Positions 14,684-64,000 of a DNA stretch of 64,000 nucleotides are shown one piece after another (the first letter of the stretch is position 1; every line of letters starts with the position of its first letter). Position numbers and translations under genes: made by a program. The notes under the pieces are model-generated. The model was not told where the DNA came from. It did not search any database and saw only the letters and a list, made by a program, of their open reading frames with translations. Location: positions 1 through 64,000 of the forward strand of contig NBIV01000285.1 in the NCBI GenBank assembly GCA_003194525.1, given 5' to 3'. This DNA comes from Gracilariopsis chorda. Taxonomy: Eukaryota > Rhodophyta > Florideophyceae > Gracilariales > Gracilariaceae.

Positions 14684-17600
14684 ATGGTGTGCTACTACTG
14701 TGGTAAGAAGGGGCATATCCAGAGAAACTGTTTCAAGAGACAACGTGACGAAGCTAGCAAAGAGCAGAGTGCTGCCGCAAACCCAGCTGTGCAGACCAAT
14801 CTCGGCAACGAGAAACGAGGATGTGACAGTGACTCTGACTTTGTTTGTCTCATTGCGACAGGTTCTGTGGAAGAAAGTATCAGTGACTGGATCATTGACT
14901 CTGGTGCCACCGCCCATATGACGTATGACGAGTCCATGTTTGACAGTTATAGCAAAAGAGAGTCTGCCGGTGTGAGTATCGGCAATGACTCGAAGCTGGA
15001 GTCTCTTGGTCATAGCAGTGTCCACCTCCATCTCGCTGTTGAAGGGCGTAAGAGCAAGTGCCGGTTGGGTGAAGTAGTGCACGTACCGAATCTAAGGTAT
15101 CATCTGCTGTCAGTATCTGCGATGTGTGACCTGGGTGGGCGAGTGGTGTTTGACAAAACCAAAGTATGTGTATACAAAGGCAACACCATGATCGCCCAGG
15201 GCCGTCGCATCAAAGGACTGTACTACCTATGTACCGCGATTGAAGTACCAGAAGACATGGACAACGCACTTGTGACTGACCTGTCACTATGGCATGCTCG
15301 AATGGCTCATGTGAATGTGGATGGTATCAAACATATGGCTCGTAACGGTGTTGTGTCAGGGCTGAATGTGGACTTGAATCAATCGATGGATGTGTGTGAC
15401 TCTTGTGTAGTGGGAAAATCTACACGTGCTCCAACTCCCAAGCAAGGGGGGGAACGGGCTTTGCACCCATTGGACCTAGTGCATTCGGACATTTGTGGTC
15501 CAATCCAAGTAGGTTCCTTGGGAGGTTCACGCTACTTCGTCACATTCATCGATGATCACTCCCGTTTTTGCTTCTTGTACATGCTCAAGACCAAGGATGA
15601 GGTGTTCCACGTGTTCGTGAAGTGGCTCAAGATGGTTCAAAATCAGAGTGACCGACATGTGAAAACCATCACCGCACGTGAGTCTGTGCTACATGCGTTA
15701 CGCACAGACAATGCTGGTGAATATGTGTCAAAGAAGTTTTCACAAGAGCTTGAACGTCACGGTATTGAACATCAGCGAACGGTGCCTTACAATCGACATC
15801 AGAATGGTCTGGCCGAACGGTTCAACCGAACACTCATGGACTTGGTGAGATCGATGCTGCATCACAAGAAACTGCCAAAGAGCTTCTGGGCTGAAGCATT
15901 GAACGTTGCAGTGTATGTGCGCAATCGAGTCACCTGCAAGGCCTTTCCGAGTGACGTGACACCACTCGAGATGTGGAGTGGATATGAACCTGACTTGAGC
16001 AATCTGCGTGTGTTCGGTAGCCGGTGCTGGTACAAAGTGGTGGACCACAAGCTGAAGAAGCTGGAGCAACGTGCCGTGGAGGCGATCTTTATTTGGTACA
16101 CATCTGGATCGAACGGTTATAAACTGTGGGATGCGCAAAAGAAGAAGGTGGTTGTGTCGAGAGATGTGTGGTTTGACGAATGTAGTGGTTCAGATCAAGG
16201 TACTGACCACGTTGATGATGACGACTATGCTGAGATCGACATCTCGGACAAGCCGAAATCAAACATCACCTCCACCTCTACTAAACCCACCGATGCTGCC
16301 CAAGTTGAACCCGCTACACCAGATACTCCACCAGAAGAAGCTTCAGGCAGTGGCCACGATGAGCCCACAGCTGAGACAGAAGTTGAGCCAGATGTACCAG
16401 ATCCACCACCACTTCGGGGATCCACTCGTGAGCGTAGAGCGCCTACCTCGTGGTGGCGCGGCACTGCCCTACTCACTGCCAGTGATGACATCCCATCCTC
16501 ATACTCGGATGCGGTGTCACGTCCTGATTCAAAAGCGTGGACCAAGGCCATGAACAGTGAGTACGAGTCTCTGATGGAGCATGACACATGGGAGTTAGTG
16601 CCAAGGCCAGCTGACAGCAACGTGATATCATCCAAGTGGGTATTTGTGCAAAAATATGAGGCTGGCGACAACGATGAACCGACAGTGAGGTACAAGGCTC
16701 GTGTGGTGGCTCGAGGGTTTCTGCAGATCGAAGTTGTAGACTTCTCCGAGACGTATGCACCAGTGGTCAAATTCACATCCATTAGAATGATTCTGTCCAT
16801 TGTAGCAGTGCAGGACTATCATCTGCACCAGATGGATGTGAAGACTGCATTCTTGAATGGCGACCTGGAAGAGACTGTGTACATGGAGCAGCCGGACGGA
16901 TTCATCAAACCTGGGAACGAGGACTTGGTATGCCTTCTCAAGAAAGCCATCTATGGGCTACGACAGGCATCAAGGCAGTGGTTTGCAAAGATGTACTTGT
17001 TCCTCGTTGGTTGGATGGGTCTGAAGCCAAACGTCGCAGACGAGTGCGTCTACACCGGAGAGGTACTGGGAGCGCTTGTGATCATTGCTCTTTATGTGGA
17101 CAACTTGCTCATTGCGAGTCCAAGTATGGAGACAATGAATCGCATAAAGCGTGAACTGTCAAAACGTTTTCAGATGAAGGATCTCAGTGAAGCGTGCATG
17201 GTACTTGGGTTCGAGATCCATCGTGATCGATCCAAAAGACAGCTGTACCTGACACAGTCTGCATACACGCGTAAGGTCTTAGAACGTTTTGGCATGTTGC
17301 AGTGCAAACCAATGGACACTCCCATGGACTCCGGTGCTGACCTCACTAAGGTAGAAGAGCCTCTGACGAACATCCCGTATCGTCAGGTGATAGGTTGTCT
17401 GATGTATCTCTCTGTTGGCACTCGACCGGACATCTCGTTTGCAGTGTCCAAGCTAGCCAAGTACGTCGAGAAACCTGGAGAGACTCATTGGAAAGCGGTC
17501 AAGCGTGTTCTGCGTTACCTCAATGGCACTCGCTCCCTCGGACTTACTTATGGCACCACGACTGATACTCAGCTGTATGGATACGTAGACTCTGACTGGG

Positions 17601-48364: not shown

Positions 48365-50020
48365 ATGGAAGCTACTGATGGCTCTAAAGACATCGTTCCC
48401 GTTGTCGCTCCAGAAGCGACTGCTGGTGATGACATTGGCTCACCCACTCTCAACATTCCACTGGTCGAGGACAAGCGTCAAAAGCAGGTGCGTGCATGAG
48501 AAGTATAAAAATTTCGTTATCTTTAAAACTTGGGACTCACAAACGTGTTTGTAACAAATGGTTTCAATTCGGTAGATATCATTCTGCAAAAGAAGGATTA
48601 CACTGTTTAGAAAATGCCACGAGCTTGTACGTATGCACCAGCTTACCAATTCTACTTAAGAAAACCTGACTGTTATGTTCCTGAGATATTTTGCATTACT
48701 CTAGGCGGAGGGGTGGGGTGCTCAAATAGGTATCATTGTCTTTGGACCGAGCAAAAAGTTTCTTTACGAATACACTACTGAAGGTTTCCTTCCCATCCTT
48801 AACAGGTATGCCAAACATGAGGGAAGGAGAAAAGTGTGGACAATGAAGACGGTACGTCAAAAAGTCTTGAGCTATTAACTGAGAAAATGAGTTAGAACAA
48901 AAGATCTAACATTCTATTATTAACCCTACAGTACAGAGAAGAAGCGAATAGTAAGCATGAAAAAAGTTTGGATAAGAAAGACAATGTGCTTGAAGGAGAC
49001 GGAGTAACGCCAAATTTACATACCGCGACGCATTTGGAGGTAGGAGAGAAGCTGAGTACCCAGAATGACCAAAAATCGCCGAGAGCTGATTTCAATCGCA
49101 TAAACCGGAAGCGAAAAAGCAATGAAGACGAAATTACGCCAGCACCCGATCAAATATACACGAAAAAAGTCAAAAGGATTCGCAGAAGTTCTGAAGTAAA
49201 TCCGGGCAGTAAAACGCAAGCGTCGGGTAGTATTTCAAATCTATTGGGTTTGCCTTTGGGGGCCGGAACAATAGAGGGACACGATAATGTAAATCGTTCT
49301 TCGGGTATTTGCAAAAATCATAAGCCAACGTCATTGGAATTAGAGCAAGGAACGGAAACAGGCTTTCAAAAAGATTCAGTTAGGAATAATACTTGGCAGG
49401 ATCTAAGAAGCACGGATCCCCATGGAACTATTACAGGAAACGAATCCAACAGGAACTTTGACAATCTACTTCTCTCCTTGCACACCGATGAGACTGGAAA
49501 TATAGTACTTCGTGAAGGCTATCCAATGAATCAAATTACGGGCACGAATACACGTCAGCTTCCAGATGCACCTAACAGAAACTTTGAGAGTGTGTTTGAC
49601 AGAACTACGTCTGCACCAGTTCCTTCTGTGGCGACTGCCACTCCACTTGGCCAATTCTCATTTGAACCAATCACAGCGGATTTGAGCAGAGACAGACAAG
49701 AAATAGAACAACAAAGATTTCTGGCATCCTTATTGTCAAACAATGAAACTTTGGACCATACTACTTTGAGAAACAGGTCATACCAGCCTAGCGTTCGTTT
49801 TACTGGATCAAATGATGAGTGCAACTGTGGCGTCGCGGGACATGACCAAACCGCCCACAGCCTTCTACAAATAGCCATAGAGGGTGAGCCGGCTGCGCAC
49901 AATGAAGCGCAACTCTCAACAGGGCAAGAGCTTCTAAATACGAATAATGATTTCGGAGGAACAGATGGCGGTACTTACAATTACGATTTAGACAGCATTT
50001 TACCCAAACCACAAGAGTAG
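48365..50020 (+). CDS. MADS-box transcription factor, four exons
   Basis: Nuclear DNA-binding protein, 469 residues when spliced. Exons 48365-48487, 48576-48626, 48705-48851 and 48932-50020; introns of 88, 78 and 80 bp with GTGCGT, GTACGT, GTACGT donors and GGTAG, CTCTAG, CTACAG acceptors. All junctions are phase 0. Only across the first three exons does a MADS domain appear: NIPLVEDKRQKQ (exon 1), ISFCKRRITLFRKCHEL (exon 2), GAQIGIIVFGPSKKFLYEYT (exon 3). These correspond to the basic helix and the two beta strands of MADS domains. It spans about residues 29-80 and is followed by a helical extension. Exon 4 encodes about 360 residues that are polar, Asn/Ser/Thr-rich and low in complexity, with a basic KRKSNED stretch. 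The initiating ATG is the first in an open stretch that begins at 48296. Confidence 0.8.
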
Positions 50021-51043
50021 AGGGAGTTCGATCGCTCTGTGGCGCTTCTGAGAATACGCGGAAGAGACGTGAAAAGTCTTCTCTTGATAGCAAAGCAGAC
50101 CAAAATGTCGCTCACAAAAGTAAATCCTGTTAAATGTTTAAGCTATTTGGAATGACTGAACAGTTCTAGAAGCAATATGAAATCTCTCAGCTTTGCAGTT
50201 GCAAATGTCAGTGTTTGGAAACTTAAAAGAGCAGAAAAGCAATATAAATACTGAAAGCGGTTGGTCAAAGACTGAAATTTTCCGTAGCCTTGGAGAACGC
50301 CCTGAAAGAGATGTGAAAACTACTCAGAATTACATGCTCTGGAAACATGGATTAGAGAGCGACAACGTGTTAGGAAATACAAAGTTTGGAGAGTGAAACA
50401 CAACTGCTACAGGTAAGGGTTAACTGCTACCGTTGGTAAGGGTTACCGTTGTACAACGGTCCCGATTGTTTAGGGATGAGGCCTTAGAGGCCTCGTCCGT
50501 AGCTTTCTGTGCGTGAGCTGTGTGAGGTGTCCCACTGTCAGGCGATTTACGTACTGTAAAGGGAAGTGGGAATCGTGTCTGTTCGCAAGAATTCAAGCAT
50601 TACGCTCTGCACCAATACCGCAGCGCCACACGGGAGAAGCTCTCTCAGCATTCCCTTCAGGATGTGATACATGTCAGCAAAGCCGGGAACGTTCAAAGCT
50701 CAAACCGTCCACGCTCCCCCCACACCGAACGACCATGACACCAAGTCGGCACTGTCGCCATGGAATCGACGTGCTGCCAAATTCTCGCACATCCATAGCT
50801 CACCTTTTTCCACGAAGCAATCCAAAAATACGCCCGCGCATTCATCTATTAGAACCGGCAACAACTCTTTTGCTTTTGAGCATGTGACCCGGTTTTCCAA
50901 GAGATTGGAACATACACGTTCATCAACTTGCTCCCTCACACATCATAAAAGGAGCGCAGACGGTTTTGGAGGGCTGCTCAGCGCCGATGGGGAAGTCCAT
51001 CGAGATCCATCCTGAAGAGAACTGTCGTGTGAGCCTCTGAGAA
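50021..51043. other. intergenic, palindrome cluster at 50412-50494
   Basis: No convincing gene. ORFs at 50513-51015 and on the minus strand overlap each other and have no recognised domain. A cluster at 50412-50494 holds two GGTAAGGGTTA repeats, a perfect 16-bp palindrome (50445-50460) and a 6-bp stem hairpin (50478-50494). Confidence 0.5.
50944..50952 (+). promoter_or_regulatory. TATA-like box of the Cys-rich gene
   Basis: CATAAAAGG about 90-100 bp upstream of the ATG at 51044, a typical TATA distance if the 5' UTR is some 60-70 bp. Confidence 0.4.
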
Positions 51044-51910
51044 ATGAACATGTTCAAGTCGTTGATAGCGTTCGTATTCTTGGCCTTGGTTCCCTACTCT
51101 CTCGCCCAGCCAAGGCTCCCGTGCCATTTTGGAAAGCATCTGCCGTATTTGTCTTCCTACGTGTCTGAACATTGCCGTCACACTTCTTTGGTCCTGAAAC
51201 CGAAATGTGCCCCGTGCGCTCACAACAGCGAGTGCATGCATGGAACATGCTGGCATGGAAAATGCATGGATGGGAAAACTTTCTCGATTGCACAATGTTT
51301 ACTACCGGAGTGCGCTGCGTGCAAAAGAGATGACGAATGTGTGACTCACAGGTGCTGGAGTGGAAAGTGTGTGTTCGATTCTGTGGCGGCCAGACGCAAG
51401 TGTTTCAAGAAAACGGAATGTCAGCAATGCTCTAAGGGATCGGAATGTGAACAGGGCAAATGCTGGGGTGGCCGATGCACAGATGGCAGTGATGCATCGT
51501 TGAGAAAATGCTTTTTGGCAGAGTGTGCAGTATGCTCGTCGTCCTCCAAGTGCAGCACGAAGAAGTGCTGGAACGGTCGGTGTGTGTACAACACCGAGGC
51601 TTCGAAGAAGAGGTGCTTCGGAAAGAAGGAATGTGCTTCGTGTGCTTATGGATCGCAGTGCGCGCAGGGCAAGTGCTGGAGAGGCAAGTGTACCGACGGT
51701 TCAGACAAGTCCTTGAGAAAGTGTTTCTTGCCGGAGTGCGCCAGTTGCGTTCACTCCTCCCAGTGCGATACATGGAAGTGTTGGAATGGGAAGTGTGTTT
51801 ACGACACCTACACTTCTCAGCAAAAGTGCTTCCGCTTTGGGGTCCCAGTTCATAAGCCCGGTTGTATCGGTGGATACAAAACGTGGGGTGGAAGGATAGT
51901 ACGCTGCTAG
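51044..51910 (+). CDS. secreted protein of six 6-Cys modules
   Basis: 288 residues, single exon. Residues 1-22 form a signal peptide (hydrophobic IAFVFLALVPYSLA, cleavage likely after ALA). After a spacer, six modules begin at Cys 55, 90, 126, 161, 197 and 232, each CX2CX5CX4CWXGKC(or GRC)X10C. Odd modules have a DGS or DGK loop and end CFLPE or similar; even modules have VYDT or VFDS and end CFKKTE or similar. The gene therefore looks like three copies of a 71-residue two-module unit. The tail has two further Cys (KPGCIGG, IVRC). The spacing suggests three disulphides per module and an extracellular role. I do not recognise the family; EGF-like, chitin-binding and metallothionein spacings do not match. 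Confidence 0.8.
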   Translation: MNMFKSLIAFVFLALVPYSLAQPRLPCHFGKHLPYLSSYVSEHCRHTSLVLKPKCAPCAHNSECMHGTCWHGKCMDGKTFSIAQCLLPECAACKRDDECVTHRCWSGKCVFDSVAARRKCFKKTECQQCSKGSECEQGKCWGGRCTDGSDASLRKCFLAECAVCSSSSKCSTKKCWNGRCVYNTEASKKRCFGKKECASCAYGSQCAQGKCWRGKCTDGSDKSLRKCFLPECASCVHSSQCDTWKCWNGKCVYDTYTSQQKCFRFGVPVHKPGCIGGYKTWGGRIVRC

Positions 51911-51984
51911 GGGATCATCACATGGACGCTGCTACTTGTGAGCTTGACACCTAGTCCGACCAGATGTAGCGTGTTACGAAACGC

Positions 51985-51990
51985 AATAAA
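51985..51990 (+). terminator. poly(A) signal of the Cys-rich gene
   Basis: AATAAA 75 bp after the stop codon at 51908-51910. Confidence 0.6.
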
Positions 51991-52070
51991 CGTGAGCCCG
52001 TCTCTCTAAGCTTCTGCTCTTTAACTGTGCGGGAGCAGTGGACAGGACATAGTCATGCATTTGATCTCCT

Positions 52071-52457
52071 CTAATGAAGGAGCTTGCTTCCCGAATCGAC
52101 GTCCCACTGAAACAAGTTTACCGGCGCAGAGCCTGCGCTGAGCACCAGAGATCGCGACGCCAGTTCCAGTACACAAGAACAGCCATGAGAGAAGCCATAC
52201 ATATCCGTACCGCGATATGACACGTCTGCGACGCCTGGAATGTTGTAACTGGGTGAACCTTTCTCAAGGCCCACTGCAACTGCGCTCATTCCCACTTTCG
52301 TAGCGAAGCAATTTGCGTTTCGTGTTCTGTTGCAGTTGACGAAGCGGGCTGGTGCACGAGCAGTAGCACAATGTTTCTCAACGTAGCCTGAGAGGCGAGA
52401 AATACTGCTTTGCAATGCGTGTATTGCCACACAGTAACGCGAACATGTCACATGTCG
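52071..52457 (-). CDS. hypothetical ORF, possibly an exon
   Basis: 129 codons from the first ATG (MRHVTCSRYCVAI); the frame is open upstream to 52586 but without an ATG. It contains eight Cys, no signal peptide and no recognised domain. There is no clear polyadenylation signal. It may be the last exon of a minus-strand gene or chance. The next 500 bp (52587-53011) show no gene. Confidence 0.2.
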   Translation of the reverse strand, partial: RHVTCSRYCVAIHALQSSISRLSGYVEKHCATARAPARFVNCNRTRNANCFATKVGMSAVAVGLEKGSPSYNIPGVADVSYRGTDMYGFSHGCSCVLELASRSLVLSAGSAPVNLFQWDVDSGSKLLH

Positions 52458-53014
52458 CATGTCGGTACGGGCGGTTCTTGAAGAGGTTGTGAATGGCTTA
52501 GGCGCAAACGCATTGTAATGATGATATGGCGAATGGTTCTCTATCTGTTGCACGGCAAGCAAATTAGGAAGGAGCACTATGTGCAACAGGTAAAGATAGT
52601 TAACTTTAGCAGATGAAGCGGAGGCGATCCAAGATTACAAGGGTATTGTGGATAAAAAGTGCTCCAGCAGGTTGGAAGCATGCTAGACATGCACCCACAC
52701 GCGACGTCGTGCATCTTCCGGTATGGGTCGCGGATGCTCTGCCGTCGTGATTGATGCATCGCTGATGCATTGCTGTGATGCAACACGCGCAACTCACACC
52801 TTCCCGATGCAGGATCGCTCCCTTCTCTGTAAACACAGGTCTTCAAAGACTGAATAAAGCTCTAGCATGCATTGGACGAGTTTCGTTCTCCGTCGGTGAT
52901 TGTCTGGGAAGTGAGTTACGTCCGCGACGGACTACCAACCTTGTATGAGCGCCTCGGCTGAACCATGCGATAAACTTGGGAACATTGGCGTCGGCAACGT
53001 ATCCAGCACTGTTA

Positions 53015-53028
53015 GGGCGTTCCCAACC
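53015..53028 (+). repeat. left terminal inverted repeat of Harbinger element
   Basis: GGGCGTTCCCAACC, preceded by TTA (53012-53014). Identical to the inverse of the right end for 14 bp; the similarity then fades. Confidence 0.9.
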
Positions 53029-53515
53029 GTTACCGTAAACCCCAAATCCAACATAGCAGTCCAGTATTTGCTCAAAATTTGACCCCCAACCGTTGACGCA
53101 ATTCTCAAAACTCGGCCTAAAAATTTTAGTCCACCCTAAATCCCACACGTTTTGGGCCAGCTCCCTAAAAGCTCTGGTAGCTCTGCATGGTTACCCGCCC
53201 CATCTCCGGTCGTATCGTCTTCGTCACCCCCCTCCGGGGTGACGCCGCGTTGTTTGGCATTCGCGCACTCCATCTTGGCACAACCTTGTTGTGTTTTGCA
53301 CGGAACATTTTGGCGCCAAGAATGACGAAATGCAAACACTTTGTTGGCTTGCGCATGGCGCCAAAAGACCTATTACGATCTGTCCATCGACCAACGGAGC
53401 CCAAATTGCAATGATTGCACTGATTACCCGCCTTTGAACGCCTTAGAAATAACTTGACGGTAACCTTTTGAGGTGTGCACCTTAAGACTTTGGCAGTCGG
53501 TTGCTTGTTAAAGCA

Positions 53516-54571
53516 ATGAGTGGGGAGGAAGCAGCTTGTGCGCAAAATGGTTTGGAAGAAGGAGGCAGCCCAAGTAGAGGGAAGAATCTGACATGGGACG
53601 AAGAAGAAACGCAGGCGTTAGTGCGTGCGGCTGCTGCCGTTTGTACTGATCCGGCTGTGGGCTCTAGCATGTCAGGAGCGGAGCTCGGGCGTCGCATTCG
53701 CAGTGTCTTTATCAAAGACAATGGACGCCCGCAACATGCATGCTCACTACGGCGCACTGGGTGTGAACTGGACCAAAGGAGGTGGGACGGACGATCAGCA
53801 GATGGGTGTAGGAAGTATTGGGACAGGATTCGTGCGGAGTGCACACGCTTCAAGGCTTGTTACGACAGAGTTATAGCGATGAATCTAACTGGAAATGTAG
53901 GACCGGAGGACTTGATTCGATGTGCAGCCTTAATTTACAGTGATGGAAGTAACTCCTTATCCCACCTCTACGACTGCGTGAGAAATCCAAATTACCACAT
54001 AGCGAAGCGATTCAAATTCAAAACCTCGTTTACCTTCTTAAACGAAAACACTATTCTACTACAGGCTAATGGTATTGATGAGGTTAAAAAGAGTGGTGAT
54101 GTTTTGTTGGAGAGGCCAATGGGGACAAAGAAGGCCAAGAAATTGAAGGAGGGAAAAGTCGATGGAGCACGAAGTGGACAGGACGGGTTTGCGGATTCAA
54201 TTCGCCGCATTGAAAGTATACTGTCTGACTCAGTGCGAGAGAAGGCACTCATGGCAAAAGAGAAGGTGGCACTACAGAGAGAAAAGCTGGACTGGGAAAT
54301 GGCAAGCAAACTGTTGGCATCGGAATCTGGAGTATCCCTTGAAGAGAAAAGAGAAATACGAAGTCTCTTAAAATGTCGTTTACTTCGCAGACTTGCGTGC
54401 GGTGGCGAGAATAATACGCACCCCAACAAGAAGAGGCGTATGTCGCTAGAAGAACATGAAGAGATGCACACTGTCCAGGCAAAAGTTTCCGGGAACAATC
54501 AAACTGCTGAGGCACTACTGCAGCTGTCGACAAGAATGGAAAACACCGTGAACACGGACGTTGAGCAATAA
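53516..54571 (+). CDS. Harbinger Myb/SANT-like accessory protein
   Basis: 351 residues from ATG 53516 (MSGEEAACAQNG). Residues about 24-120 form a Myb/SANT trihelix-like domain: LTWDEEETQALVRA, a long insert with RIRSVF, then RSADGCRKYWDRIRAECTRF. A second conserved part follows (LIYSDGSNSLSHLYDCVRN). About residues 230-300 are rich in heptad-like Leu and charged residues (coiled coil likely). In this superfamily such proteins bind the transposon ends and bring the transposase to the nucleus. AATAAA overlaps its stop codon (54567-54572) and may serve as poly(A) signal. Confidence 0.8.
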   Translation: MSGEEAACAQNGLEEGGSPSRGKNLTWDEEETQALVRAAAAVCTDPAVGSSMSGAELGRRIRSVFIKDNGRPQHACSLRRTGCELDQRRWDGRSADGCRKYWDRIRAECTRFKACYDRVIAMNLTGNVGPEDLIRCAALIYSDGSNSLSHLYDCVRNPNYHIAKRFKFKTSFTFLNENTILLQANGIDEVKKSGDVLLERPMGTKKAKKLKEGKVDGARSGQDGFADSIRRIESILSDSVREKALMAKEKVALQREKLDWEMASKLLASESGVSLEEKREIRSLLKCRLLRRLACGGENNTHPNKKRRMSLEEHEEMHTVQAKVSGNNQTAEALLQLSTRMENTVNTDVEQ

Positions 54572-54598: not shown

Positions 54599-55933
54599 TT
54601 ACACATCTCCTTCATTATCACCATGCGTGTTCCAAATGTTCGAGATTAGTGCATCTTGCAGTCTCAAATGGTTTTGTACATCGTCCACAGGGTCTAGCAG
54701 TTCTCTCCAAATATTTGCTTGTTCATAACTACAGTTAGGATGTGAAACAGTATCATAAAGAGTACCACTTGTCTGCACCTCGTGTTCGCCCACACGAAAT
54801 TTTGCGGTTCCGTTGTAACCGCGCTCTTCTGCAACCATATTATGTAGAATCGAACAGCACAATACAATATTATTCAAATCCTCCCGATTTCCCAACCGCG
54901 CGGGACGATCCAAAATTTCAAACTGTCCGAAGAGCGCAGCAAAGACCCTTTCAACACTCTTGCGCGCCGATGAGTGCACTGCAGTATACAGACGCTGTTT
55001 TTTCGACTTTGCATCAGGATGCGGTTTTGCAAAGAATCTCAGACGAGGGTATATCCCGTCTGACAAGAAAAAGAACCACTCAATGGGAATGCCAGAAATG
55101 TTAGTACTAGGTTTGATCAGTGGCCATTTTCCATTTCGAATATCATTAAACAAAGAACTTTGTGACATAATAGATATATCATTCTTAGCTCCCGGGCTGC
55201 CAAACATCATGTGCCAAATATGTAGCTTATCGTCACACACAACCTCCATCCGTAACATCGGCTTGTTCTCCTTACCCTTATACTGTCCATGCCAAGCTAC
55301 AGGACAGTTCCTCCACTCCCAACCTGAACAGTCTACAGCACCAAGGCATCCAGGGAAGCCTAGTCTAGAATAATCACTTTCAATCTTCTTAATATCACTC
55401 TCCGATGGGCGTCTTAGATGTTCATCTCGAAAGCACTCCACAACCGTTCTGTAGAATTCTTTCAGAGTAGAAAGCAATGTGGACTCATGCAGTCGAATAT
55501 ACGACACTAAATGATCTGCAGAAACACCAGAACTGAGCTGCAAAAGTGCACCAGTCATTTTCTGATCAGTCGTTGCTCCAAATGTCCAACTTGCATCTTT
55601 GCGCTGTAGAAAGAAGGAGTTTGCCTGGCAAAGAGCGGATCGCAGTTTTTCGTATATTGGTCTTGTTATTGCAAAGCGACGTTCAAATTCTGCAACACTA
55701 AACATCGGCGAGCGGTGAATATGAATTCGACAGAAGTAATCTAAATCAATTTGGTGTGTTCCTTGTTTACGGCCAATCTTACGGTTCTTTTGTCGACCGG
55801 CATACGAGCCTCCTTTCTTTGTTATCAGGGGTCCATCGGAAAGTTTGCGGTACATGCCGTTGAGGATGTACAAAATTGAGTGATGAATAATGTCCTCATC
55901 AGAGGAAGACGAAGAAGAAGAATCGGTTGACAT
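54599..55933 (-). CDS. PIF/Harbinger DDE transposase
   Basis: 444 residues from ATG 55933 (MSTDSSSSSSSDEDIIHH). This start is preferred because it lies within the element; the frame stays open 72 codons further, through the right inverted repeat into flanking DNA (ATG 56147-56149). The DDE_Tnp_4 nuclease is seen with GAVDCSGWEW (Asp about 201), FFLSDGIYP (Asp about 292) and RKSVERVFAALFGQF (Glu about 328). An HTH-like region (FERRFAITRPIYEKLR, KMTGALLQLSSGVSADHL) precedes it. After the Glu comes the usual LNNIVLCCSILHNM helix. The enzyme cuts and joins element ends at TTA or TAA sites. All catalytic residues are present. Confidence 0.9.
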   Translation of the reverse strand: MSTDSSSSSSSDEDIIHHSILYILNGMYRKLSDGPLITKKGGSYAGRQKNRKIGRKQGTHQIDLDYFCRIHIHRSPMFSVAEFERRFAITRPIYEKLRSALCQANSFFLQRKDASWTFGATTDQKMTGALLQLSSGVSADHLVSYIRLHESTLLSTLKEFYRTVVECFRDEHLRRPSESDIKKIESDYSRLGFPGCLGAVDCSGWEWRNCPVAWHGQYKGKENKPMLRMEVVCDDKLHIWHMMFGSPGAKNDISIMSQSSLFNDIRNGKWPLIKPSTNISGIPIEWFFFLSDGIYPRLRFFAKPHPDAKSKKQRLYTAVHSSARKSVERVFAALFGQFEILDRPARLGNREDLNNIVLCCSILHNMVAEERGYNGTAKFRVGEHEVQTSGTLYDTVSHPNCSYEQANIWRELLDPVDDVQNHLRLQDALISNIWNTHGDNEGDV

Positions 55934-56097
55934 GCTCTGGTTCTTCTGCAACCACCGAAGGATTTCGGTTCTTAGTCGAGTTAAGGTTTTGCGACCATTC
56001 GGAGTGCCAATGGTGCCGGGCAGCCTATATTGAGCTGGTGTTTGTCTTCCAATGAGGTTTGCGCATTTGGCCTCGTTTTCTAGCGATTTGGGCAGAT

Positions 56098-56111
56098 GGT
56101 TGGGAACGCCC
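56098..56111 (-). repeat. right terminal inverted repeat of Harbinger element
   Basis: GGTTGGGAACGCCC, followed by the TTA duplication at 56112-56114. Confidence 0.9.
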
Positions 56112-56114
56112 TTA

Positions 56115-57143
56115 GTGTAGTTCTTGGCCTTCTGGAGATGAGTAAGCATGTTTCAAGATAGGTTTTCTGTGAAATCGAAACAAGGACGACCGTCGCCGAC
56201 TAGACGTAGCTGAGCGACCCCTTCCAGTCCAGCCAATCAAGTAAGAGAGGCCGGCTAGGATGCTGGATTTTTGCAGAAAGAAAAGTTCTTTGATACGAAC
56301 TCCTACTGCGCTTTGGGAATTATTGGGGCACAAGCTGATCCAGCTTCTCGCGGTGTGCAGTCTTCCCACCATTATCGAGTAATGGAGGGGAAACGGATCA
56401 CGCAAGCGGAACCCCAAAAGAATACAACTCTAAACGGGAATCTAAGTAGCGTGACCTCCAAACCAACAACAACATACAAAAGAGCGCCTGGTGGCAAAGC
56501 CCTCTCATCTTGCAATGTGCTCTCTTCTCCTGCTCCCCGTCAAACTTCTTACGATGGTACGAAAATCAATGTTGTCATCACGTAGTGTACACGTAGCGAC
56601 ACACAATAAAGTCCCTGCCCGCCGGCGAGACCGCCAGAGGGAAGAGAGCATCGATTCTCTCTTGTCTCAGGTTATGGGCACCAGCGCGCCACAGCGCCAC
56701 AAACATAAACAACCGCAATCGATCCGCGGTCAGAGCGTTGCTCCCGTGTTTCCCGGTCAGAGCGTTGCTCCCGTATCTCCCTGTCTTCGTCCACATTCGT
56801 TTTCCCACCTCACGGACCGCGAAAAACGTGCGCAATACCATGAAACTAGTTTCATCTGGTCAGAATTGTGGACAAACGCCAAACTTCAAACCACCAGCTC
56901 CAGGTATACAATGAGCGGACCCTCTCAATCTAGTTTCCCTGCAATGCCAATCACTCATCCTTCCTGGCGGTTTACAGAAGAAATCGTTGAACTCACTGCA
57001 TAACATTATATCCAGTGGAGACAAAACCTTGACGATATTCTTACGGAACATGAATATCAACAACTCTTTTCCACCACATTTCAACCCACTACCAGCGAAG
57101 ACCACAAAGCGACCGCCAGTCTCCCCCGGATAATTACAAAAAG
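56115..57143. other. intergenic; 27-bp tandem duplication at 56728-56781
   Basis: The overlapping ORFs (56271-56585, 56491-57003) have no recognised domain. Two copies of a 27-bp unit (GGTCAGAGCGTTGCTCCCGT plus seven bases) lie at 56728-56754 and 56755-56781, differing by two bases. The stretch ends at the LTR boundary 57144. Confidence 0.5.
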
Positions 57144-57968
57144 TGTGGTGCAATGCCCCAAAGGGGAAAAAAACCGAAAGACGTTCGGGATCTTCCTCTC
57201 ACGAGGTTAACCCAGTTGGATAGAGCCCTCCCAGAGGTGTCACGGCGAAGCCGGTTTGTAAGACCAGGGACACCTGTCACGACTCGCGCAGGGAGGTGAA
57301 GGCGAAGAATCGGTATCCGCGTGAGCGGGGTGTGATCCTCAGTAGAGGTATGTTTCCACGTAAGTGGGGGTGTGTGAGCGGATGCTTACACGAGGGCCGC
57401 GGATAGCGGGAGGTGCTACCCTAAAAAGGGGGAAAAAAAAGGGCGAAGAGGAGGAAGAGAGGACGATGTGAGTCGCGAGAGCGACGAACAGATACGGCGA
57501 TGCCGGTAACAATATCCCTATACAGGGCGAAACACCAATATGATTGGAACAATTGTACTCCCAAGGATGGGCTTCTTTAGATGTGCAAGGGGGTTAGATG
57601 TCCCGTGGTTTACGGCGTTTCCCTCCAAGGAGGAGTAGAATACGCGCGCAAGCGGCAACAACTAGAGCCAATTCTCCAGGTTGGGGTCCCTTGTTGGGGA
57701 GGGTTTACTGGTGCGACGGCAGTGCGCCGTCGCACTAAGTACTAGCTTCCCAGAAATGGGTGTGAAAATAATAAATAATATGAGCTAAAATACTCCACAT
57801 TTCGTGGCAACATCCACTACTGTGGCCAACCGCCAATTGACCCAAAACCGTGTCCCACGTGTCCATATCCACCATAGTGGGGCGTAGTTCATATACACAC
57901 TACACAACCGATAATATCGGGAGAGCGTTCAAGTACCCAAAATCTCTGCCTGAGGGCGTTGCACTTCA
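57144..57968 (-). repeat. 3' LTR of the gypsy element (single copy seen)
   Basis: 825 bp with imperfect inverted ends: TGTGGTGCAATGCCC on the left and, inverted, TGAAGTGCAACGCCC on the right (12 of 15 match), with TG...CA termini. It is flanked on its right by a polypurine tract. Without the 5' LTR in the window the ends rest on these features only. Confidence 0.6.
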
Positions 57969-57980
57969 TATCCCCCCCTA
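57969..57980 (-). other. polypurine tract
   Basis: The minus strand reads AGGGGGGGATA immediately before the LTR start TGAAGTGC. This is the expected plus-strand primer site of an element transcribed on the minus strand. No TGG-type tRNA site follows the LTR on the plus strand, which argues against a plus-strand 5' LTR. Confidence 0.6.
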
Positions 57981-58023
57981 AGACAGGAAAACGACCGCGG
58001 ACGCGGAGGATTACCAGACGAAA

Positions 58024-59811
58024 ATGGGTGATAAAAGCGCGTGCTCTGTCTCCGGTTCTCCGGTAAACCCCTCTGCATCAGAGTCATCGAGCGCACAAAC
58101 AACAACAACAGCCACCCTCCAAAAGGGAAAAATGAACGACGACAACAACATCAACAACCACAGCCAACCTCCGAGACTTCTCGGGCGATACACCACCGGT
58201 TTCCGGTCAGTTCCCCTGCCTCAGGGTGATCGAAATCCGGTACAACCGGGGAATATGGCTGCTGCAGCCGACCATCCCTTCGCACTACCACCTTCGGTGG
58301 TGTCCTCCGGAACCACTCCGGTGTCCAGCTGGCCAACCTACAACACCCTGGTGGGGCTCAACCCGATGAATTGGAATCACGCGTCGCGCCTGCGCCTTGC
58401 CCCGTGGTTTCACCCGGTCGCTGTCCTCAATGAGGGATTGGTCACCGCTTATGCGGATGGCTCAGACACCCTTCCGGGGCATCTGCCCAGAGCAGTCACC
58501 CCATCGGGGGATTGGCGTCACCGGATTGCGATTCCGCGTCACCACCTCCGAAGAAATTCGGGCGAGACCGTCGCTGCGGCACAGACCGCGTTGACACGCA
58601 TGGCGTATCAACGGCAGAGCCGGGCTCCATTCGATGTACCGGTCCCACCGGAGTTTGGCTTCGACGGTAGCTACTTCCGCATTCGCGGGGAGATTGGGTA
58701 CGGCGAGAACCTGTTCCGCCTCGAGACCCTCGCTTGGAGGAATTTCCCCGCAGCGCGGCAAGAAGCCCTTTGCTGGGAGCGACCGATTATTCGGGCGGAG
58801 TTCAGGTACCTTCCCCGGCAATACCGGTCCAACTTTCTCCAAAACTTCATCCGCTACGAGTGGCGTTGGCGATCCCGATTCGGGTATTTTATCCCGTATC
58901 AGAACGTGGAGATAGAGCGGATTGCGCCGCCTCACCGACTAGGTCGGTATGTAGCACTCCCCGAGTGGTGGCGCTTCCATGAAGCCTGCCGGGGGTGCTA
59001 CATAGAACTCCCGCCGGTACTTACGTACCTCGGTTCGCTGCTCATGCAGGATCCCCGGTCGGGGTTGTGGTCCGTAGTGGTTACGGATTGGGCGGCCCGC
59101 ACTGCGGCTTAAATCTTCAACGAGGCGTACGACCAGTATCTTCTCTGGTTCCTTCAACCGCGTGTGCGGGCAGCGATCCGAAACCTGGATCTTCGCATCC
59201 CCCTTGGGGGCCAGGCCAACAATGAAGAGGTCCTCCAATTACTTGGGTACATTGACAGCGTTAGCTGGAGTGAGGTCCCGCTGGAGCAAAGCGGTCGTCT
59301 GGATGGCGGTAGCGGTAACACCGGTGGTCCGGGACTCGGTAGAAACACCGCCCTTGTGGGGGATTTTATCTACTTCGACCCCTGGGAGTTCCGGGAAATT
59401 TCCTCCGAGGAGGGGCGCGAGCTTCGCGATACGCCCCGGCATGTGCCGGAAGACCACCCGGTGGGGTACGTCGATTCTGACGACAACTACCGCGCATACG
59501 GTGGGGATGACCCAATGGTCGATAACGAACCCGAAGAACCCGGGGAGATGGACGTAGAGGAAACCGGCGCTAGCGCGGAAGCTTTCTCAGAGGGGGTATC
59601 TCCGGCCGAGCCGGCTGCTGACCCTTCGGCGGCAAGTGCCGGACCTTCTATCCCCAGCGGGGTGACGGCGAATGAAAACGAAATCATCGCATGTTTCCTC
59701 CGGGGTGCCGGTCTTAGCGCTGCCGAGGTATCGGGGGATGTCACCACCATGGCGGACGCGTTGGCCTACCGCCTTGCTGGGGGTTACGCCCCGGACGATG
59801 GGGGTGAGTGA
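58024..59811 (+). CDS. unknown gene antisense to the gypsy element, one in-frame TAA
   Basis: 596 codons in one frame, starting ATG 56 bp inside the LTR border and interrupted only by TAA at 59110-59112 (GCG GCT TAA ATC). It is thus either a recent pseudogene, a readthrough gene or a 362-residue protein. I do not recognise it. The first 80 residues are Ser/Thr/Asn-rich. A central region is rich in Arg and aromatic residues (NFLQNFIRYEWRWRSRFGYF, LPEWWRFHEACRGCY). The last 130 are acidic and Pro/Ala/Ser-rich (DNEPEEPGEMDVEETG). There is no CCHC knuckle, signal peptide or transmembrane segment. AATAAA follows at 59899. It shares the micro-hairpins, so it belongs to the element; it is not a typical gag or env. 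Confidence 0.55.
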
Positions 59812-59898
59812 ACCCTCTAGTCCAGTTTCCTGGTTCTTCTTTCCCTGGCTATGCCAGTTAGTGTAGTGTAGTATTGTGGGGAGCTAGCTGCTCCCTTG

Positions 59899-59904
59899 AA
59901 TAAA
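59899..59904 (+). terminator. poly(A) signal of the antisense gene
   Basis: AATAAA 87 bp after the stop at 59811, just before the minus-strand chromodomain ORF ends at 60003. The convergent transcripts would overlap little. Confidence 0.5.
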
Positions 59905-60002
59905 CTTTCCCGTTTAGAACGGTGCTTCTCGGTTGAGTTCCCCGTCTTCGACGGACTTTGCCTTGTTATCCTTTCCTTTCGCTCTCCGCTCGCGCGGCAA
60001 CG

Positions 60003-60797
60003 TTACCCAACTTGGGCATTAAGCAGCGTGGCTGGGGCTGCAGTTCCCGTTTGACGGTGGTATCGCAGGACCTGCGACCGTGGGAGGTGTTCGATTGGCT
60101 CCCACGTATCCCCACTGGGGTCATACCCGTACCAGCGGACGCGGTATTGTAGAATACCATCCTGGTCCCAGGTGTGTCCGACAAGTCGGTCTACTACGAA
60201 CTCTCGTTCGTAGACCTGCCGGCCGTGCCGGGTGGTGGTTGTAATCCCTGGCGAGGGTTGCCCGCGGTGCGGTATAATGTCCCTTAGCAGGGTGTTCGGC
60301 GATAACTCCGACGTTGCCGTGCGCTGTCCTAGTGGCCGCTGCTCATACGGGAAAATATCCCTCAAGAGGGTGTGTGGTGTCACGGTTTTCACCGGCAAGT
60401 CGTTCCGCAGAGGGGTGTCGTTGTTCCCGTCTTCACGGTAGGCCGGGCGAACCGCCAGTCGGCGGGGGACTTGGGTTCCGCCTTCGCGGTTGAGCTCACG
60501 AACCGCGAGTTTGCGGGAAGATGACCGCTCCTGCGGGATCGTCATTTCCACAATCCCCTGGGGGGTCCCGTGCGACACGGTGATTGGGTGGCAAACCGCC
60601 TCCCTGCCAGGCGCACGAGCGCTCTGCACCATACGTTCCGGCGATGCCGTGGTGTCCCCGGCTACTGACGGGTTGCCTGGGGCTAACTCCGGTACACCGG
60701 TATTTTGGTCAAAATTCCCCTCTGGGGGGTGCCGGGCAGGTGCCGATGACACCCTTTTCAGGGGAATTGCCCCTAAGCGTGGTGCAACCATCTCCAT
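60003..60797 (-). CDS. gypsy ORF3 with C-terminal chromodomain
   Basis: 264 residues. The first 190 are Pro/Arg/Thr-rich and repetitive (PHTLLRDIFPYEQ and PNTLLRDIIPHRG). Residues about 198-250 form a chromodomain: EREFVVDRLVGHTW, YRVRWYGYDPSGDTWEPIEHL, including the aromatic residues that bind methyl-lysine in this fold. In chromoviruses this domain is normally fused to the integrase C-terminus and targets integration to marked chromatin. Here it lies in a separate frame, overlapping ORF2 by 89 nt and over 800 nt from the pol stop. Splicing, frameshifting or decay of a once continuous frame are all possible. Confidence 0.7.
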   Translation of the reverse strand: MEMVAPRLGAIPLKRVSSAPARHPPEGNFDQNTGVPELAPGNPSVAGDTTASPERMVQSARAPGREAVCHPITVSHGTPQGIVEMTIPQERSSSRKLAVRELNREGGTQVPRRLAVRPAYREDGNNDTPLRNDLPVKTVTPHTLLRDIFPYEQRPLGQRTATSELSPNTLLRDIIPHRGQPSPGITTTTRHGRQVYEREFVVDRLVGHTWDQDGILQYRVRWYGYDPSGDTWEPIEHLPRSQVLRYHRQTGTAAPATLLNAQVG

Positions 60798-61578
60798 GAG
60801 GAAGAGCAGCGTCCGGTACGACCTGTTTCGAGCGTGCGATGGCGCGCGTTATTCCCGAGTTCCTCGGTTCTTCGCCGCAGCGTTGCGGGGGTTGGCGCAA
60901 ATTATTCCCCGTAGCGGGGGCTTCGATTCCGTCAACGACGGGAGGCGTTTCCGGTGCTTGCGAGCCAGGGCTTAGAGCTTCGACTGCGGCTTGGCTGCCT
61001 TTTTCCCCAAGAGGGGTGTGGGTATTTCCCTGTGAGGCCGGCGTATCTGGGCGCCCCTTCTCTGCAAGGCGCGGGTCTGATCGACCTGATTGAACCGCTT
61101 CCGCGGGGACTTCCGCCAACGGCGGCTTCGAGGCATCGCCCTGCTCAGGGGATTGGGGGCAATCGTCACCATACTCCCTTGTCGGGGATCCTTCCCTGAC
61201 AGGGGTGTGCGGTAGTTGCGCTTCAACTTCCCGTGTAGCACGGTATGTTTTCCGCGTTTGTGGCGATGCCTCCGGGGATGGATTGGGCGATTGCCTTTCC
61301 GCTGCTGCGGTATTGGAGTGAGGCTTCTCGTTTTCCCGTGACAAACGGTGTATTTGCCGCTCTTGCGGGGCCTGCGCGTCTGGTTCCTGTTGCACAGCAC
61401 TGCCCGGGAACGGGGGATTAGTGTCGCGTGACATACTCCGTGCTCCACGGTCAGTGTTCCGTATGTTACGGTGTGTTTCCCGTTGCGACGGCGATATCGT
61501 TCCTCGAAAACGAGTGTTCTGCTCCCCCTCCTTAGACGGAGCGGCGGGATAAGGGATAACAGGGATAAGGGATAACAT
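60709..61578 (-). CDS. gypsy ORF2, low-complexity protein of unknown role
   Basis: 289 residues from ATG 61578, starting 93 nt after the pol stop, in another frame. It is rich in Pro, Glu, Arg, Thr and Ser with no recognised domain. Its first codons lie in a perfect 16-bp tandem repeat (61546-61577). Much of its sequence is dictated by micro-hairpins. It could be an extended integrase tail separated from pol by a frameshift rather than a separate gene. Confidence 0.45.
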   Translation of the reverse strand: MLSLIPVIPYPAAPSKEGEQNTRFRGTISPSQRETHRNIRNTDRGARSMSRDTNPPFPGSAVQQEPDAQAPQERQIHRLSRENEKPHSNTAAAERQSPNPSPEASPQTRKTYRATREVEAQLPHTPVREGSPTREYGDDCPQSPEQGDASKPPLAEVPAEAVQSGRSDPRLAEKGRPDTPASQGNTHTPLGEKGSQAAVEALSPGSQAPETPPVVDGIEAPATGNNLRQPPQRCGEEPRNSGITRAIARSKQVVPDAALPHGDGCTTLRGNSPEKGVIGTCPAPPRGEF

Positions 61579-61670
61579 TCCCCGCCTGGCGGGTATAGAT
61601 GCGCGCCAGTGGGGCGGACGTGGTAGGGGCGGGCGCTGAGGGGCCCGAATTACCCGGCTGAGCCGGTTAG

Positions 61671-64000
61671 TCAGACAGAGTCGGTAGGTCTGAGAGTCCC
61701 CGGCTGGGGGTTTGGTAGTACCGTAGGTCTAGTACTCCCGGATGGTTCCTGTGTTCCAGAGTCCGTAGAAACGGGGTTGCCTGGATCCAGGACTACCTCT
61801 GACGAGGGAGGAGGGGCAAGGACAACACGATCACGGGAAATCCGTTCGTGCGTGTCCCCCATCTCTACCACGACAGTGTCGGTGTTAACAGAGATGACCT
61901 TGAAGGGTCCATCCGCCACAGGCGAGAGTTTGTGACGCTTCTCCCGTTCCGGGTTGTAGTATTCCTTCCTGATGAAGACGTAGTTATTAGCCCGAATCGG
62001 GGACGGTTTCCCTCGCAAGCGAGCGTCGAAATCCCGCTTGTAAGCGGCTTGGGCCCGTGCCATAGACTTCCGCGCAGCGGGGACCAGCTTGGAAAGCCAT
62101 TGCTTCCATTGCTGCCGGTAGATACCCACAGATGGGAAATTGTCCAAGGTAGCTTGGGGTTCCAGCGCCACAGGCGGGGGTGTTCTAGATAGAACCAACT
62201 CGAATGGCGAAACTCCGGTAGTCCGGTGTACCTGCGTATTGTACGCGTAGGTTACCGCATCAGCGTAGAGATCCCAATTCGTTGGGTGGTCAGCGACGTA
62301 GGAACGTAACGCCGCGAGTAACGTCCGGTTAAACCGTTCAACTTGCCCATTACACTGTGGGTGGTAGGTAGTCGTGAACAAGTTCTTGACATCCAGGATG
62401 CGACAAACATCCTGGAAGAACTTGCTCACGAACTGCTTCCCGTTGTCAGAGAGCACCTCCACAGGGGGACCGTAGACAAAAATCCAGTGCGTCACCAGAG
62501 CCTGGACCACCGTGAGAGCGGTTATCCTCCGAAGAGGGACAGTCCGTACCAGCTTAGAAAAGCGGTCGGTGATGACAAGTAGAAACTTGTTTCCACGTTT
62601 TGTGGTGAGTAGTGGTCCGAGAAGATCAATTGCGATAAACTCGAGTGGCGCCCTTGCGGGGAATAGTTTCATCTTCTTCGCATTTTTGCGGAGTTTGACG
62701 CGATTCTTCGCGCATTCGCTACAAAACCGCAAAGTTGCGTAGCAATCCACCGCCATTGCAGGCCAATAGAAATCCCTTCGCAGGGTTAGGTAGAGTTTCC
62801 TCTCACCTGGGTGACCTCCAATGGGGGCGTAGTGTGATAGATGTAACACCCGCGATTGCAGGGAATGTGGGACCACAATCTGTGGGCGGGCTTCGACCTT
62901 CCTTACGAGGTAGCCTTTGTCGTTTACCCCGAAAGGAAGATCTTCACCACCGTTGATACGGGCACGAATTCTCGTACAGAATGGGTCGCCGAATTGTTCT
63001 CGGATCATTTCTTCCGGTGATACCGGTACAAAGTTTCCCGGTAACGGGTTCTCAGTTTTATCTCGCGATGCGAGTAGATCGTCAAAGTCAGCATCCTCGT
63101 CCCAGTTTTCTGGCCCAGCCTCGACGGCATATTCCGGATCATCCGGGTCTATAGCCATGAAACATGGGACTTCATCATCCTCCGTTGGGAGTGCTTCCCC
63201 ACTTGTGGGTAACCGCGACAAAGCGTCGGCCTGGGTGTTATGCGCACCCTTTTTATAAATGACTTGAAAGTCATATTCCGCGAGGCGGAGTCTCCAGCGC
63301 ATGAGGCGTCCCGACGGGTCGGAGATATTCATCAACCACCTCAATGAGGAATGATCCGTGTACACGGTGAAGTGAATTCCCGTAAGGTAGGGGCGCAGAG
63401 TGTTCATCGCCCATACGACGGCGAGGCACTCTTTCTCCGATACGGAGTAGTTCCGCTCATGAACATTGAGCGAGCGCGACCAATAACCAATTGGATGTCG
63501 TTCCCCCTCGGGGGTGGTTTGAAAAAGAGCACACCCGACTTGGTAGTCGCTCGAGTCCGTATCTACGGAGTATGGCAACCCAAGTTTTGGGAGATGTAGG
63601 ATTGGTGCTGATGTGACAGCCTCCTTCAAGGAGTTGAAGGCTTCCGATTGCTCGGGCGTTAATGTTCCCAATTTTGGGGGGTTCCCCTTTCGCAACAACG
63701 CGTTTAGGGGCGCTGCAGTATCCGAAAAGTTCGGGATAAACCATCGATAGACGTTGACTAGCCCCAAAAAGGAGCGCAGTTCCGTTTGAGTACGGGGTTC
63801 TTTCGCCTCAACGAGGGATTTGACTCGAGCTTTCTCGATCGCTAACCGTCCAGGACGGATAATGTGACCCAGATACTTCACAGTATCTGTGAAAAACTCG
63901 CATTTCCTTAACTTGAGGGTAATTCCCGCATCGCGGAGTACGGTCAGCACGTCTCGGACGTGAGTGAGATGGTCTTCCAACGAGTTGGAGATGATGATAA
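61671..64000 (-). CDS. gypsy Pol, partial: RT thumb, RNase H, integrase
   Basis: About 776 codons, open at the window edge; the residues IIISNSLEDHLTHV at the edge are those that follow the YxDD of Ty3/gypsy RT. In order: RT connection (LRKCEFFTDTVKYLGHII, FLGLVNVYRWFIPNFS), RNase H (SVDTDSSDYQVGCALFQ, YSVSEKECLAVVWA, YTDHSSLRWL, NTQADALSR), an HHCC-type zinc region (HYAPIGGHPGERK, CSECAKNR) and the integrase core: AIDLLGPL, LSDNGKQF, NGQVERFNRTLL with Asp, Asp and Glu all present. Then comes the GPF/Y-like module (YNPEREKRHKLSPVADGPF). No lesion is seen; the C-terminus has no chromodomain. Confidence 0.9.
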   Translation of the reverse strand, partial: IIISNSLEDHLTHVRDVLTVLRDAGITLKLRKCEFFTDTVKYLGHIIRPGRLAIEKARVKSLVEAKEPRTQTELRSFLGLVNVYRWFIPNFSDTAAPLNALLRKGNPPKLGTLTPEQSEAFNSLKEAVTSAPILHLPKLGLPYSVDTDSSDYQVGCALFQTTPEGERHPIGYWSRSLNVHERNYSVSEKECLAVVWAMNTLRPYLTGIHFTVYTDHSSLRWLMNISDPSGRLMRWRLRLAEYDFQVIYKKGAHNTQADALSRLPTSGEALPTEDDEVPCFMAIDPDDPEYAVEAGPENWDEDADFDDLLASRDKTENPLPGNFVPVSPEEMIREQFGDPFCTRIRARINGGEDLPFGVNDKGYLVRKVEARPQIVVPHSLQSRVLHLSHYAPIGGHPGERKLYLTLRRDFYWPAMAVDCYATLRFCSECAKNRVKLRKNAKKMKLFPARAPLEFIAIDLLGPLLTTKRGNKFLLVITDRFSKLVRTVPLRRITALTVVQALVTHWIFVYGPPVEVLSDNGKQFVSKFFQDVCRILDVKNLFTTTYHPQCNGQVERFNRTLLAALRSYVADHPTNWDLYADAVTYAYNTQVHRTTGVSPFELVLSRTPPPVALEPQATLDNFPSVGIYRQQWKQWLSKLVPAARKSMARAQAAYKRDFDARLRGKPSPIRANNYVFIRKEYYNPEREKRHKLSPVADGPFKVISVNTDTVVVEMGDTHERISRDRVVLAPPPSSEVVLDPGNPVSTDSGTQEPSGSTRPTVLPNPQPGTLRPTDSV

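What the first reader, a model, noticed from the sequence alone, without database searches (positions are those of the whole stretch)
57144..64000. A retrotransposon saturated with phased micro-hairpins
From the LTR to pol, perfect hairpins of 11-14 bp (4-5 bp stem, 2-5 nt loop) recur far more often than in the rest of the window. In several stretches they are spaced 19-24 nt apart: starts at 57317, 57337, 57356; 57472, 57495, 57516; 58171, 58195, 58214, 58237; 61438, 61459, 61480, 61503; 62679, 62699. Stem sequences differ, so this is not a copied repeat but a repeated shape. It crosses LTR, non-coding DNA, ORFs on both strands and the otherwise intact pol. Equal lengths of copia DNA (for example 15001-15600) show no such pattern to the eye. 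Possible explanations are selection for an RNA or single-stranded DNA fold, template-switching during reverse transcription that turns near-palindromes into perfect ones, or a protein-binding lattice. I know of no described element with this property.
Basis: partly seen in the sequence, partly recalled or inferred. Interest (0 to 1): 0.88.

Follow-up and report, generated by a model that had tools for sequence, protein, structure and literature searches.

The report
Retrotransposon tiled with tiny hairpins
A red-algal retrotransposon carries, along its whole length, hundreds of tiny hairpins with different sequences but one shape, and the stems look selected to stay paired, which suggests that its folded RNA or single-stranded DNA does a job of its own.

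Summary
The 11.7-kb Ty3/gypsy element with a chromodomain (contig 57144-68846, sense on the minus strand) carries 520 perfect 4-bp palindromes of span 11-13 nt, about 3.2 times the composition expectation; 224 have the form CCNN-n3-5-NNGG. The excess stops at the element's ends and covers LTR, gag, RT, integrase, 3' region and antisense ORF. It beats dinucleotide and codon-preserving shuffles. Inner pairs vary but stay Watson-Crick; loops of 3-5 nt are favoured, 0-2 hardly, as in a physical hairpin. Neighbours prefer 18-21 nt spacing, without a rigid long-range lattice. A sister family (about 71% nucleotide identity) has the same shape at mostly other positions; 12 more distant gypsy pieces do not. 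Within the family, private mutations hit stems as often as elsewhere, but shared variants are halved in stems: purifying selection. Compensated changes are few and G-U is not preferred. I infer selection on a folded single strand, most likely element RNA bound by Gag; that function is untested. My literature searches found no such element.

The parts
57144..64000 (-). Window part of an 11,703-bp Ty3/gypsy element (contig 57144-68846), sense on the minus strand; hairpin excess along all of it
   Evidence: LTR pair 97.8% identical; hairpins stop at both ends of the element
57144..57968 (-). 3' LTR, 825 bp; 31 span-11-13 palindromes, 18 of them CC..GG
57969..57979 (-). Polypurine run next to the 3' LTR (label by position and composition)
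57982..59811 (+). Antisense ORF between pol and 3' LTR (ATG at 58024); one stop inside in this copy, open over 562 codons in the one other copy examined; hairpin-tiled too
60003..60848 (-). ORF with chromodomain (PF00385)
60709..61728 (-). Open frame between integrase and chromodomain, no Pfam match, dense in hairpins
61671..63998 (-). pol part: end of RT, RNase H, integrase zinc finger and core; 100 palindromes against 32.4 in codon shuffles
57317..57367 (.). Hairpin trio at 57317, 57337, 57356
57472..57527 (.). Hairpin trio at 57472, 57495, 57516
58171..58249 (.). Hairpins at 58171, 58195, 58214, 58237
61438..61514 (.). Hairpins at 61438, 61459, 61480, 61503
62679..62712 (.). Hairpin pair at 62679, 62699 inside pol

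Best explanation
The element's single-stranded form, most likely its full-length RNA, is held by selection as a chain of local hairpins (4-5 bp, often CC..GG at the base, loop 3-5 nt, commonly about 8 nt of linker). Shown: density, geometry, whole-element reach, complementarity of varying inner bases, the same shape in a sister family at mostly other positions, and depletion of stem variants among those shared between copies. Inferred: (1) the folded strand is the genomic RNA, since everything between the outer ends of the LTRs carries hairpins; (2) the hairpins act together and not as single sites, since position matters little between families; (3) they serve as many weak binding sites for Gag, helping the RNA condense and be packaged in competition with other RNAs. 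Step 3 is the least certain. I put about 0.75 on selection for a folded single strand and the figure below on the full account.
For: Excess over codon and dinucleotide shuffles in every tested segment; loops 3-5 enriched and 0-2 hardly; inner pairs Watson-Crick in 80 and 78 of 127 vs 38 and 36 expected; shared variants halved in stems while singletons are equal, odds ratio 2.2, p=1.8e-6 internal and 2.5, p=0.0015 LTR, mock hairpins null; hairpin-breaking changes purged, odds 0.46 and 0.31; sister family B shows the same loop rule and codon-shuffle excess; A after the stem in the sense strand 45% vs 33% elsewhere, p=0.002, i.e. strand polarity; folding z -0.94 on average vs about 0 for the rest of the window and other gypsy pieces.
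Against: G-U in sense RNA is not better tolerated than A-C among shared stem variants, 24 vs 24. Compensated double changes few and not clearly above cross-pair controls. Positions poorly conserved between families: 16 of 68 vs 16 of 101 controls. No positive selection for hairpin-creating changes. Third codon positions alone: same direction, p=0.09. Energy z equal on both strands and modest; B near zero on antisense. No loop consensus. No Pfam gag match, and no Gag-binding data at all.
Confidence: 0.4

Rival explanations
1. Shielding from RNA silencing: with a self-pairing hairpin about every 20 nt, few 21-nt target sites or small RNAs of the element are free of structure, so Argonaute or Dicer act poorly on it. 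Any hairpin will do, so positions may drift.
For: Spacing mode 18-21 nt is near small-RNA length (small-RNA lengths recalled); positions drift between families while density stays; the shape is the same on both strands by symmetry, and an antisense ORF implies antisense RNA.
Against: No small-RNA data; over half of the element lies outside hairpins of span 11-14; the other gypsy families of this genome do without it.
Confidence: 0.2
2. Mutation, not selection: reverse transcriptase switches template within a nascent hairpin and turns near-palindromes into perfect ones, so hairpins accumulate by biased mutation.
For: Needs a physical loop, so explains the loop rule; blind to coding frame and strand; hairpin turnover between families; correction could also lower shared stem variation.
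Against: Correction should yield about as many compensated as restored pairs; shared Watson-Crick double changes were 2 against 42 shared one-sided or non-pairing ones in the internal set, 0 against 19 in the LTR set. Does not explain CC..GG at the stem base, or why hairpin-free gypsy families of the same genome escape it.
Confidence: 0.15
3. A double-stranded DNA-binding protein with palindromic sites spaced about two helical turns apart coats the element.
For: Outer CC..GG is shared and spacing is about 20 bp.
Against: Varying inner bases remain complementary, which a dimer site does not need; sensitivity to loop length fits folding; no long-range register.
Confidence: 0.05
4. Composition, codon use or chance.
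For: The element is GC-richer than the rest of the window, 0.59-0.61 in 58001-62000.
Against: Dinucleotide and codon-preserving shuffles exceeded; spans 15-30 not enriched; family B at GC 0.52-0.53 still 2.5-3.0-fold.
Confidence: 0.02

Closest known systems
Chromodomain-bearing Ty3/gypsy retrotransposons (chromovirus type)
   Same: LTRs, RT-RNase H-integrase order and a C-terminal chromodomain; relatives in red algae, several with the chromodomain
   Different: Whole-length hairpin tiling; not seen in 12 other gypsy pieces of the same genome
[quoted passage not shown]
   Same: Structure spread over the entire genome, across coding and non-coding parts
   Different: Here very short hairpins of standard size and preferred spacing in a retrotransposon; overall folding energy excess only modest
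Dispersed packaging signals of RNA viruses, for example MS2 (PMC6281560, passages seen)
   Same: Many stem-loops dispersed over one genome, proposed to act together in packaging
   Different: Those share a coat-protein recognition motif; no loop consensus here, the shared part is the stem base; protein binding untested
LTR retrotransposons with antisense ORF between pol and 3' LTR, such as Grande, RIRE2, Retand (PMC7264820, passages seen)
   Same: Antisense ORF in the same place
   Different: No hairpin tiling is mentioned in the passages I saw; those are plant elements

Membership tests
Ty3/gypsy LTR retrotransposon | Paired LTRs | tested here: met
   57144-57968 and 68025-68846, 97.8% identical
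Ty3/gypsy LTR retrotransposon | RT and RNase H before integrase in pol | tested here: met
   Pfam order RVT_1, RT_RNaseH, H2C2, rve
Ty3/gypsy LTR retrotransposon | Target-site duplication | tested here: not met
   The 5 bp outside the two LTR ends differ; a single copy, boundaries from a blastn match, so weak
Ty3/gypsy LTR retrotransposon | Gag | tested here: inconclusive
   Open frames in the right place, no Pfam gag match
Chromovirus type | Chromodomain C-terminal to integrase | tested here: met
   PF00385, E 8.2e-11, downstream of integrase but in another open frame in this copy
GORS | Folding-energy excess over shuffles spread over the genome | tested here: met
   120-nt windows mean z -0.94, 19% below -2, n=97, vs 0.13 and 0.00 for the rest of the window; modest
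Dispersed packaging signals | Shared recognition motif in the loop | tested here: not met
   No loop consensus; GNRA 14 of 174 vs 6.1
Dispersed packaging signals | Binding by the coat or Gag protein | not testable with these tools
   Needs binding or cross-linking experiments

The most novel reading that the evidence does not exclude
A new kind of whole-genome RNA architecture: a retrotransposon lineage whose entire RNA is selected to be a chain of standard-size micro-hairpins of free sequence, a shape code laid over all its genes, read collectively by Gag or used to defeat RNA silencing.
Probability: 0.4. Interest if true: 0.93.

Novelty: new variant of a known kind. Interest (0 to 1): 0.85.

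Why it matters
It would be a retrotransposon in which nucleic-acid shape, not sequence, is selected along 11.7 kb on top of all protein-coding constraint. That gives a natural system to test whether many weak structural sites drive packaging or silencing escape in LTR elements, with two diverged families and dozens of near-identical copies already in one genome as an evolutionary assay.

Tried and rejected
Composition or codon effect: rejected by shuffles. The pol row was read one base out of frame and is replaced. Apparent excess in other gypsy loci (4 of the 30 loci L032-L061): all four hold a nested LTR of this family, so they are not independent. The distant relative L062 (46% pol identity, a contig in a Moorena genome record) shows at most a slight excess (47, 48, 41 vs 36) and almost no CC..GG type.

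Compensatory change as proof of pairing: weak. In the internal set 7 of 768 partner combinations (5 Watson-Crick) vs 20 of 2782 cross combinations showed double changes; LTR 2 of 128 (both Watson-Crick) vs 3 of 456. Between families, 15 of 29 double changes keep pairing, but so do 21 of 36 in control spans; from B to A 9 of 22 vs 15 of 29. Special loops: GNRA 14 vs 6.1 sense and 13 vs 7.7 antisense of 174, no dominant loop. Rfam at gathering threshold: no match in 57000-64000. Viral contigs: no relative. Families of intermediate distance in the own genome could not be sought by the protein queries tried; those searches failed.

Papers: searches gave listings with the start of abstracts only; passages were seen of PMC9784701, PMC6281560 and PMC7264820. 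No paper was read whole.
Full report
WHAT IS THERE. The finding lies in a Ty3/gypsy retrotransposon read on the minus strand. Its LTRs are at 57144-57968 and, beyond the window, at contig positions 68025-68846 (97.8% identical), so it is 11,703 bp long. Pfam recognises RT, RNase H, integrase zinc finger and core, and a chromodomain. Gag is named by position only; no Pfam gag model matched. A polypurine run precedes the 3' LTR, and a stretch that may be a primer-binding site (TGG..., reading by eye) follows the 5' LTR. The 5 bp outside the two LTR ends differ, so no target-site duplication was seen. Between pol and the 3' LTR an antisense ORF runs on the plus strand (57982-59811). It holds one stop in this copy, but one frame is open over 562 codons in the one other copy examined, and differences between the two fall 25, 16 and 9 on third, first and second positions. 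Its second part (232 aa) has one homologue in the database searched, a hypothetical protein of Gracilariopsis chorda, 52% identical over 79%. The pol search of the genome listed 58 places, a capped list: 57 at 95-97% identity besides the window's own; 39 of the 58 have no stop inside, with frames open up to 1,924 aa. The family has spread recently; whether it still moves is not shown.

SHAPE. In the window part, loops of 3, 4 and 5 nt are enriched (96, 114, 81 vs 30.0), loops of 0, 1, 2 little (25, 42, 47), a loop of 6 somewhat (50), and 7 or more not: the steric rule of a real hairpin. At span 12 with CC..GG ends, the next two pairs are Watson-Crick in 80 and 78 of 127 against 38.0 and 36.4 expected, with varied bases, while the two innermost position pairs show no pairing (29 vs 31.8, 26 vs 32.2). 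Nearest neighbours prefer 18-21 nt between midpoints and avoid less than 16. There is no long-range period, so 'phased' is only locally true. In the sense strand A follows the CC..GG hairpin in 45% of cases against 33% at other GG (p=0.002); family B points the same way (10 of 18 vs 49 of 130, p=0.20). This polarity is modest but hints at a single-stranded substrate.

WHO HAS IT. Of 30 gypsy loci taken by one integrase domain, 26 show ratios of 0.76-1.13, and the 4 higher ones contain a nested LTR of this same family; many of the 26 are near-copies of one another. Of 16 RT/RNase H pieces that I picked by score class from a list of 150 matches, four are 69-75% identical to the window's pol and show 2.5-3.0-fold enrichment; the other 12 (27-43% identity) show 0.7-1.3. 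The four positives are copies of one sister family B, 97-98% identical to each other and about 71% identical to the window element in nucleotides. B has the same loop rule and beats codon shuffles (42 vs mean 14.6, max 28; with flanks kept 21.9, max 33). Only pol of B was read. The trait is thus shared by these two related families and not by the other elements sampled; it is not a general property of this genome's DNA.

EVOLUTION. I compared 30 of the 40 internal copies listed and 20 LTR rows: the 2 of this element, 4 nested ones, and 14 of the 40 listed. Sites with letters in fewer than 60% of rows were dropped. Variants seen once are mostly post-insertion changes (an assumption); shared variants have mostly passed through transposition. 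In stems, singletons are as common as elsewhere (310 of 1481 sites, 0.209, vs 697 of 3644, 0.191) but shared variants are halved (47, 0.032, vs 233, 0.064; odds ratio 2.2, p=1.8e-6). In LTRs the odds ratio is 2.5, p=0.0015. Mock hairpins with loops of 10-22 (internal) and 10-16 (LTR) show no effect. Third codon positions of pol alone (p=0.09) and first and second positions (p=0.11) point the same way without reaching significance (all). Changes that destroy a hairpin are depleted among shared variants (odds 0.46, p=4e-6, internal; 0.31, p=1e-4, LTR); changes that create one are not favoured (1.15 and 0.56, not significant). So existing stems are under purifying selection, and no sign of positive selection for new ones was seen. 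In the LTR alignment one can see loops differ between subfamilies while stems stay.

RESULTS AGAINST A SIMPLE RNA STORY. Shared stem variants giving G-U in sense RNA are no commoner than those giving A-C (24 vs 24). Compensated double changes are few and not clearly above cross-pair controls. Between families A and B only 16 of 68 hairpins are kept, against 16 of 101 control palindromes (B to A: 14 of 52 against 13 of 84); CC..GG hairpins do somewhat better (11 of 37, and 9 of 20 from B to A). Double changes between the families keep pairing no more often than in controls. Energy z-scores of 120-nt windows are modest and equal on both strands of A (-0.94 each), and weaker in B (-0.37 sense, -0.05 antisense). 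These results fit a requirement that is collective and tolerant of position, and leave open whether RNA, cDNA or both is the folded strand.

MECHANISM. I rank selection on a folded single strand first. The most likely use is as many weak Gag sites for condensation and packaging: the whole LTR-to-LTR stretch is tiled, the hairpins have a standard size and spacing, positions are free, and copies of one family compete for particles. This step is inference. Silencing escape fits the spacing and positional freedom nearly as well. Template switching could create such hairpins but predicts more compensated pairs than seen and does not explain the CC..GG base.

NOVELTY. No paper describing this was found in the searches, which cover open-access full texts only. 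The nearest ideas are GORS (PMC9784701, passages) and dispersed packaging signals (PMC6281560, passages); the antisense ORF has parallels in plant elements (PMC7264820, passages). The element belongs to a known kind; the tiling is new as far as I could see.

Noticed in passing
57982-59811 (+); L097: Antisense ORF between pol and 3' LTR, open over 562 codons in another copy, with one distant homologue in Gracilariopsis chorda; no Pfam match. Possible antisense accessory gene.
   Followed up: partly
L034 2125-3171: Copy whose match jumps from about window 58059 to 59825, i.e. lacks the antisense ORF; possibly an internally deleted copy. The locus ends there.
   Followed up: no
G000 contig C257, 120758-123647: Three LTRs of this family in the same orientation, each 1,032 bp after the last: a tandem array that is not a simple element.
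   Followed up: no
G000 contigs C573, C883 and others: Other gypsy elements repeat head to tail every 5.68 kb, e.g. C573 at 4461, 10140 and 15819.
   Followed up: no
50001-54000: A weaker excess of palindromes (52001-54000: 48 vs 27.5; stems of 6 or more 6 vs 1.3 and 6 vs 2.3) without the CC..GG type.
   Followed up: partly
51041-51910 (+): 289-aa cysteine-rich repetitive ORF with a hydrophobic N-terminus by eye; no Pfam match.
   Followed up: no
54599-56152 (-): 517-aa DDE transposase (PF04827 Plant_tran, E 3.4e-52).
   Followed up: no
1-42000: Many direct and inverted repeats of 0.2-3.3 kb at 73-98% identity: a nest of related copies of other sequences.
   Followed up: no
L062 (WTKN01000225.1): A gypsy pol with 46% identity in a contig filed under a Moorena (cyanobacterium) genome bin; probably eukaryotic contamination.
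   Followed up: partly
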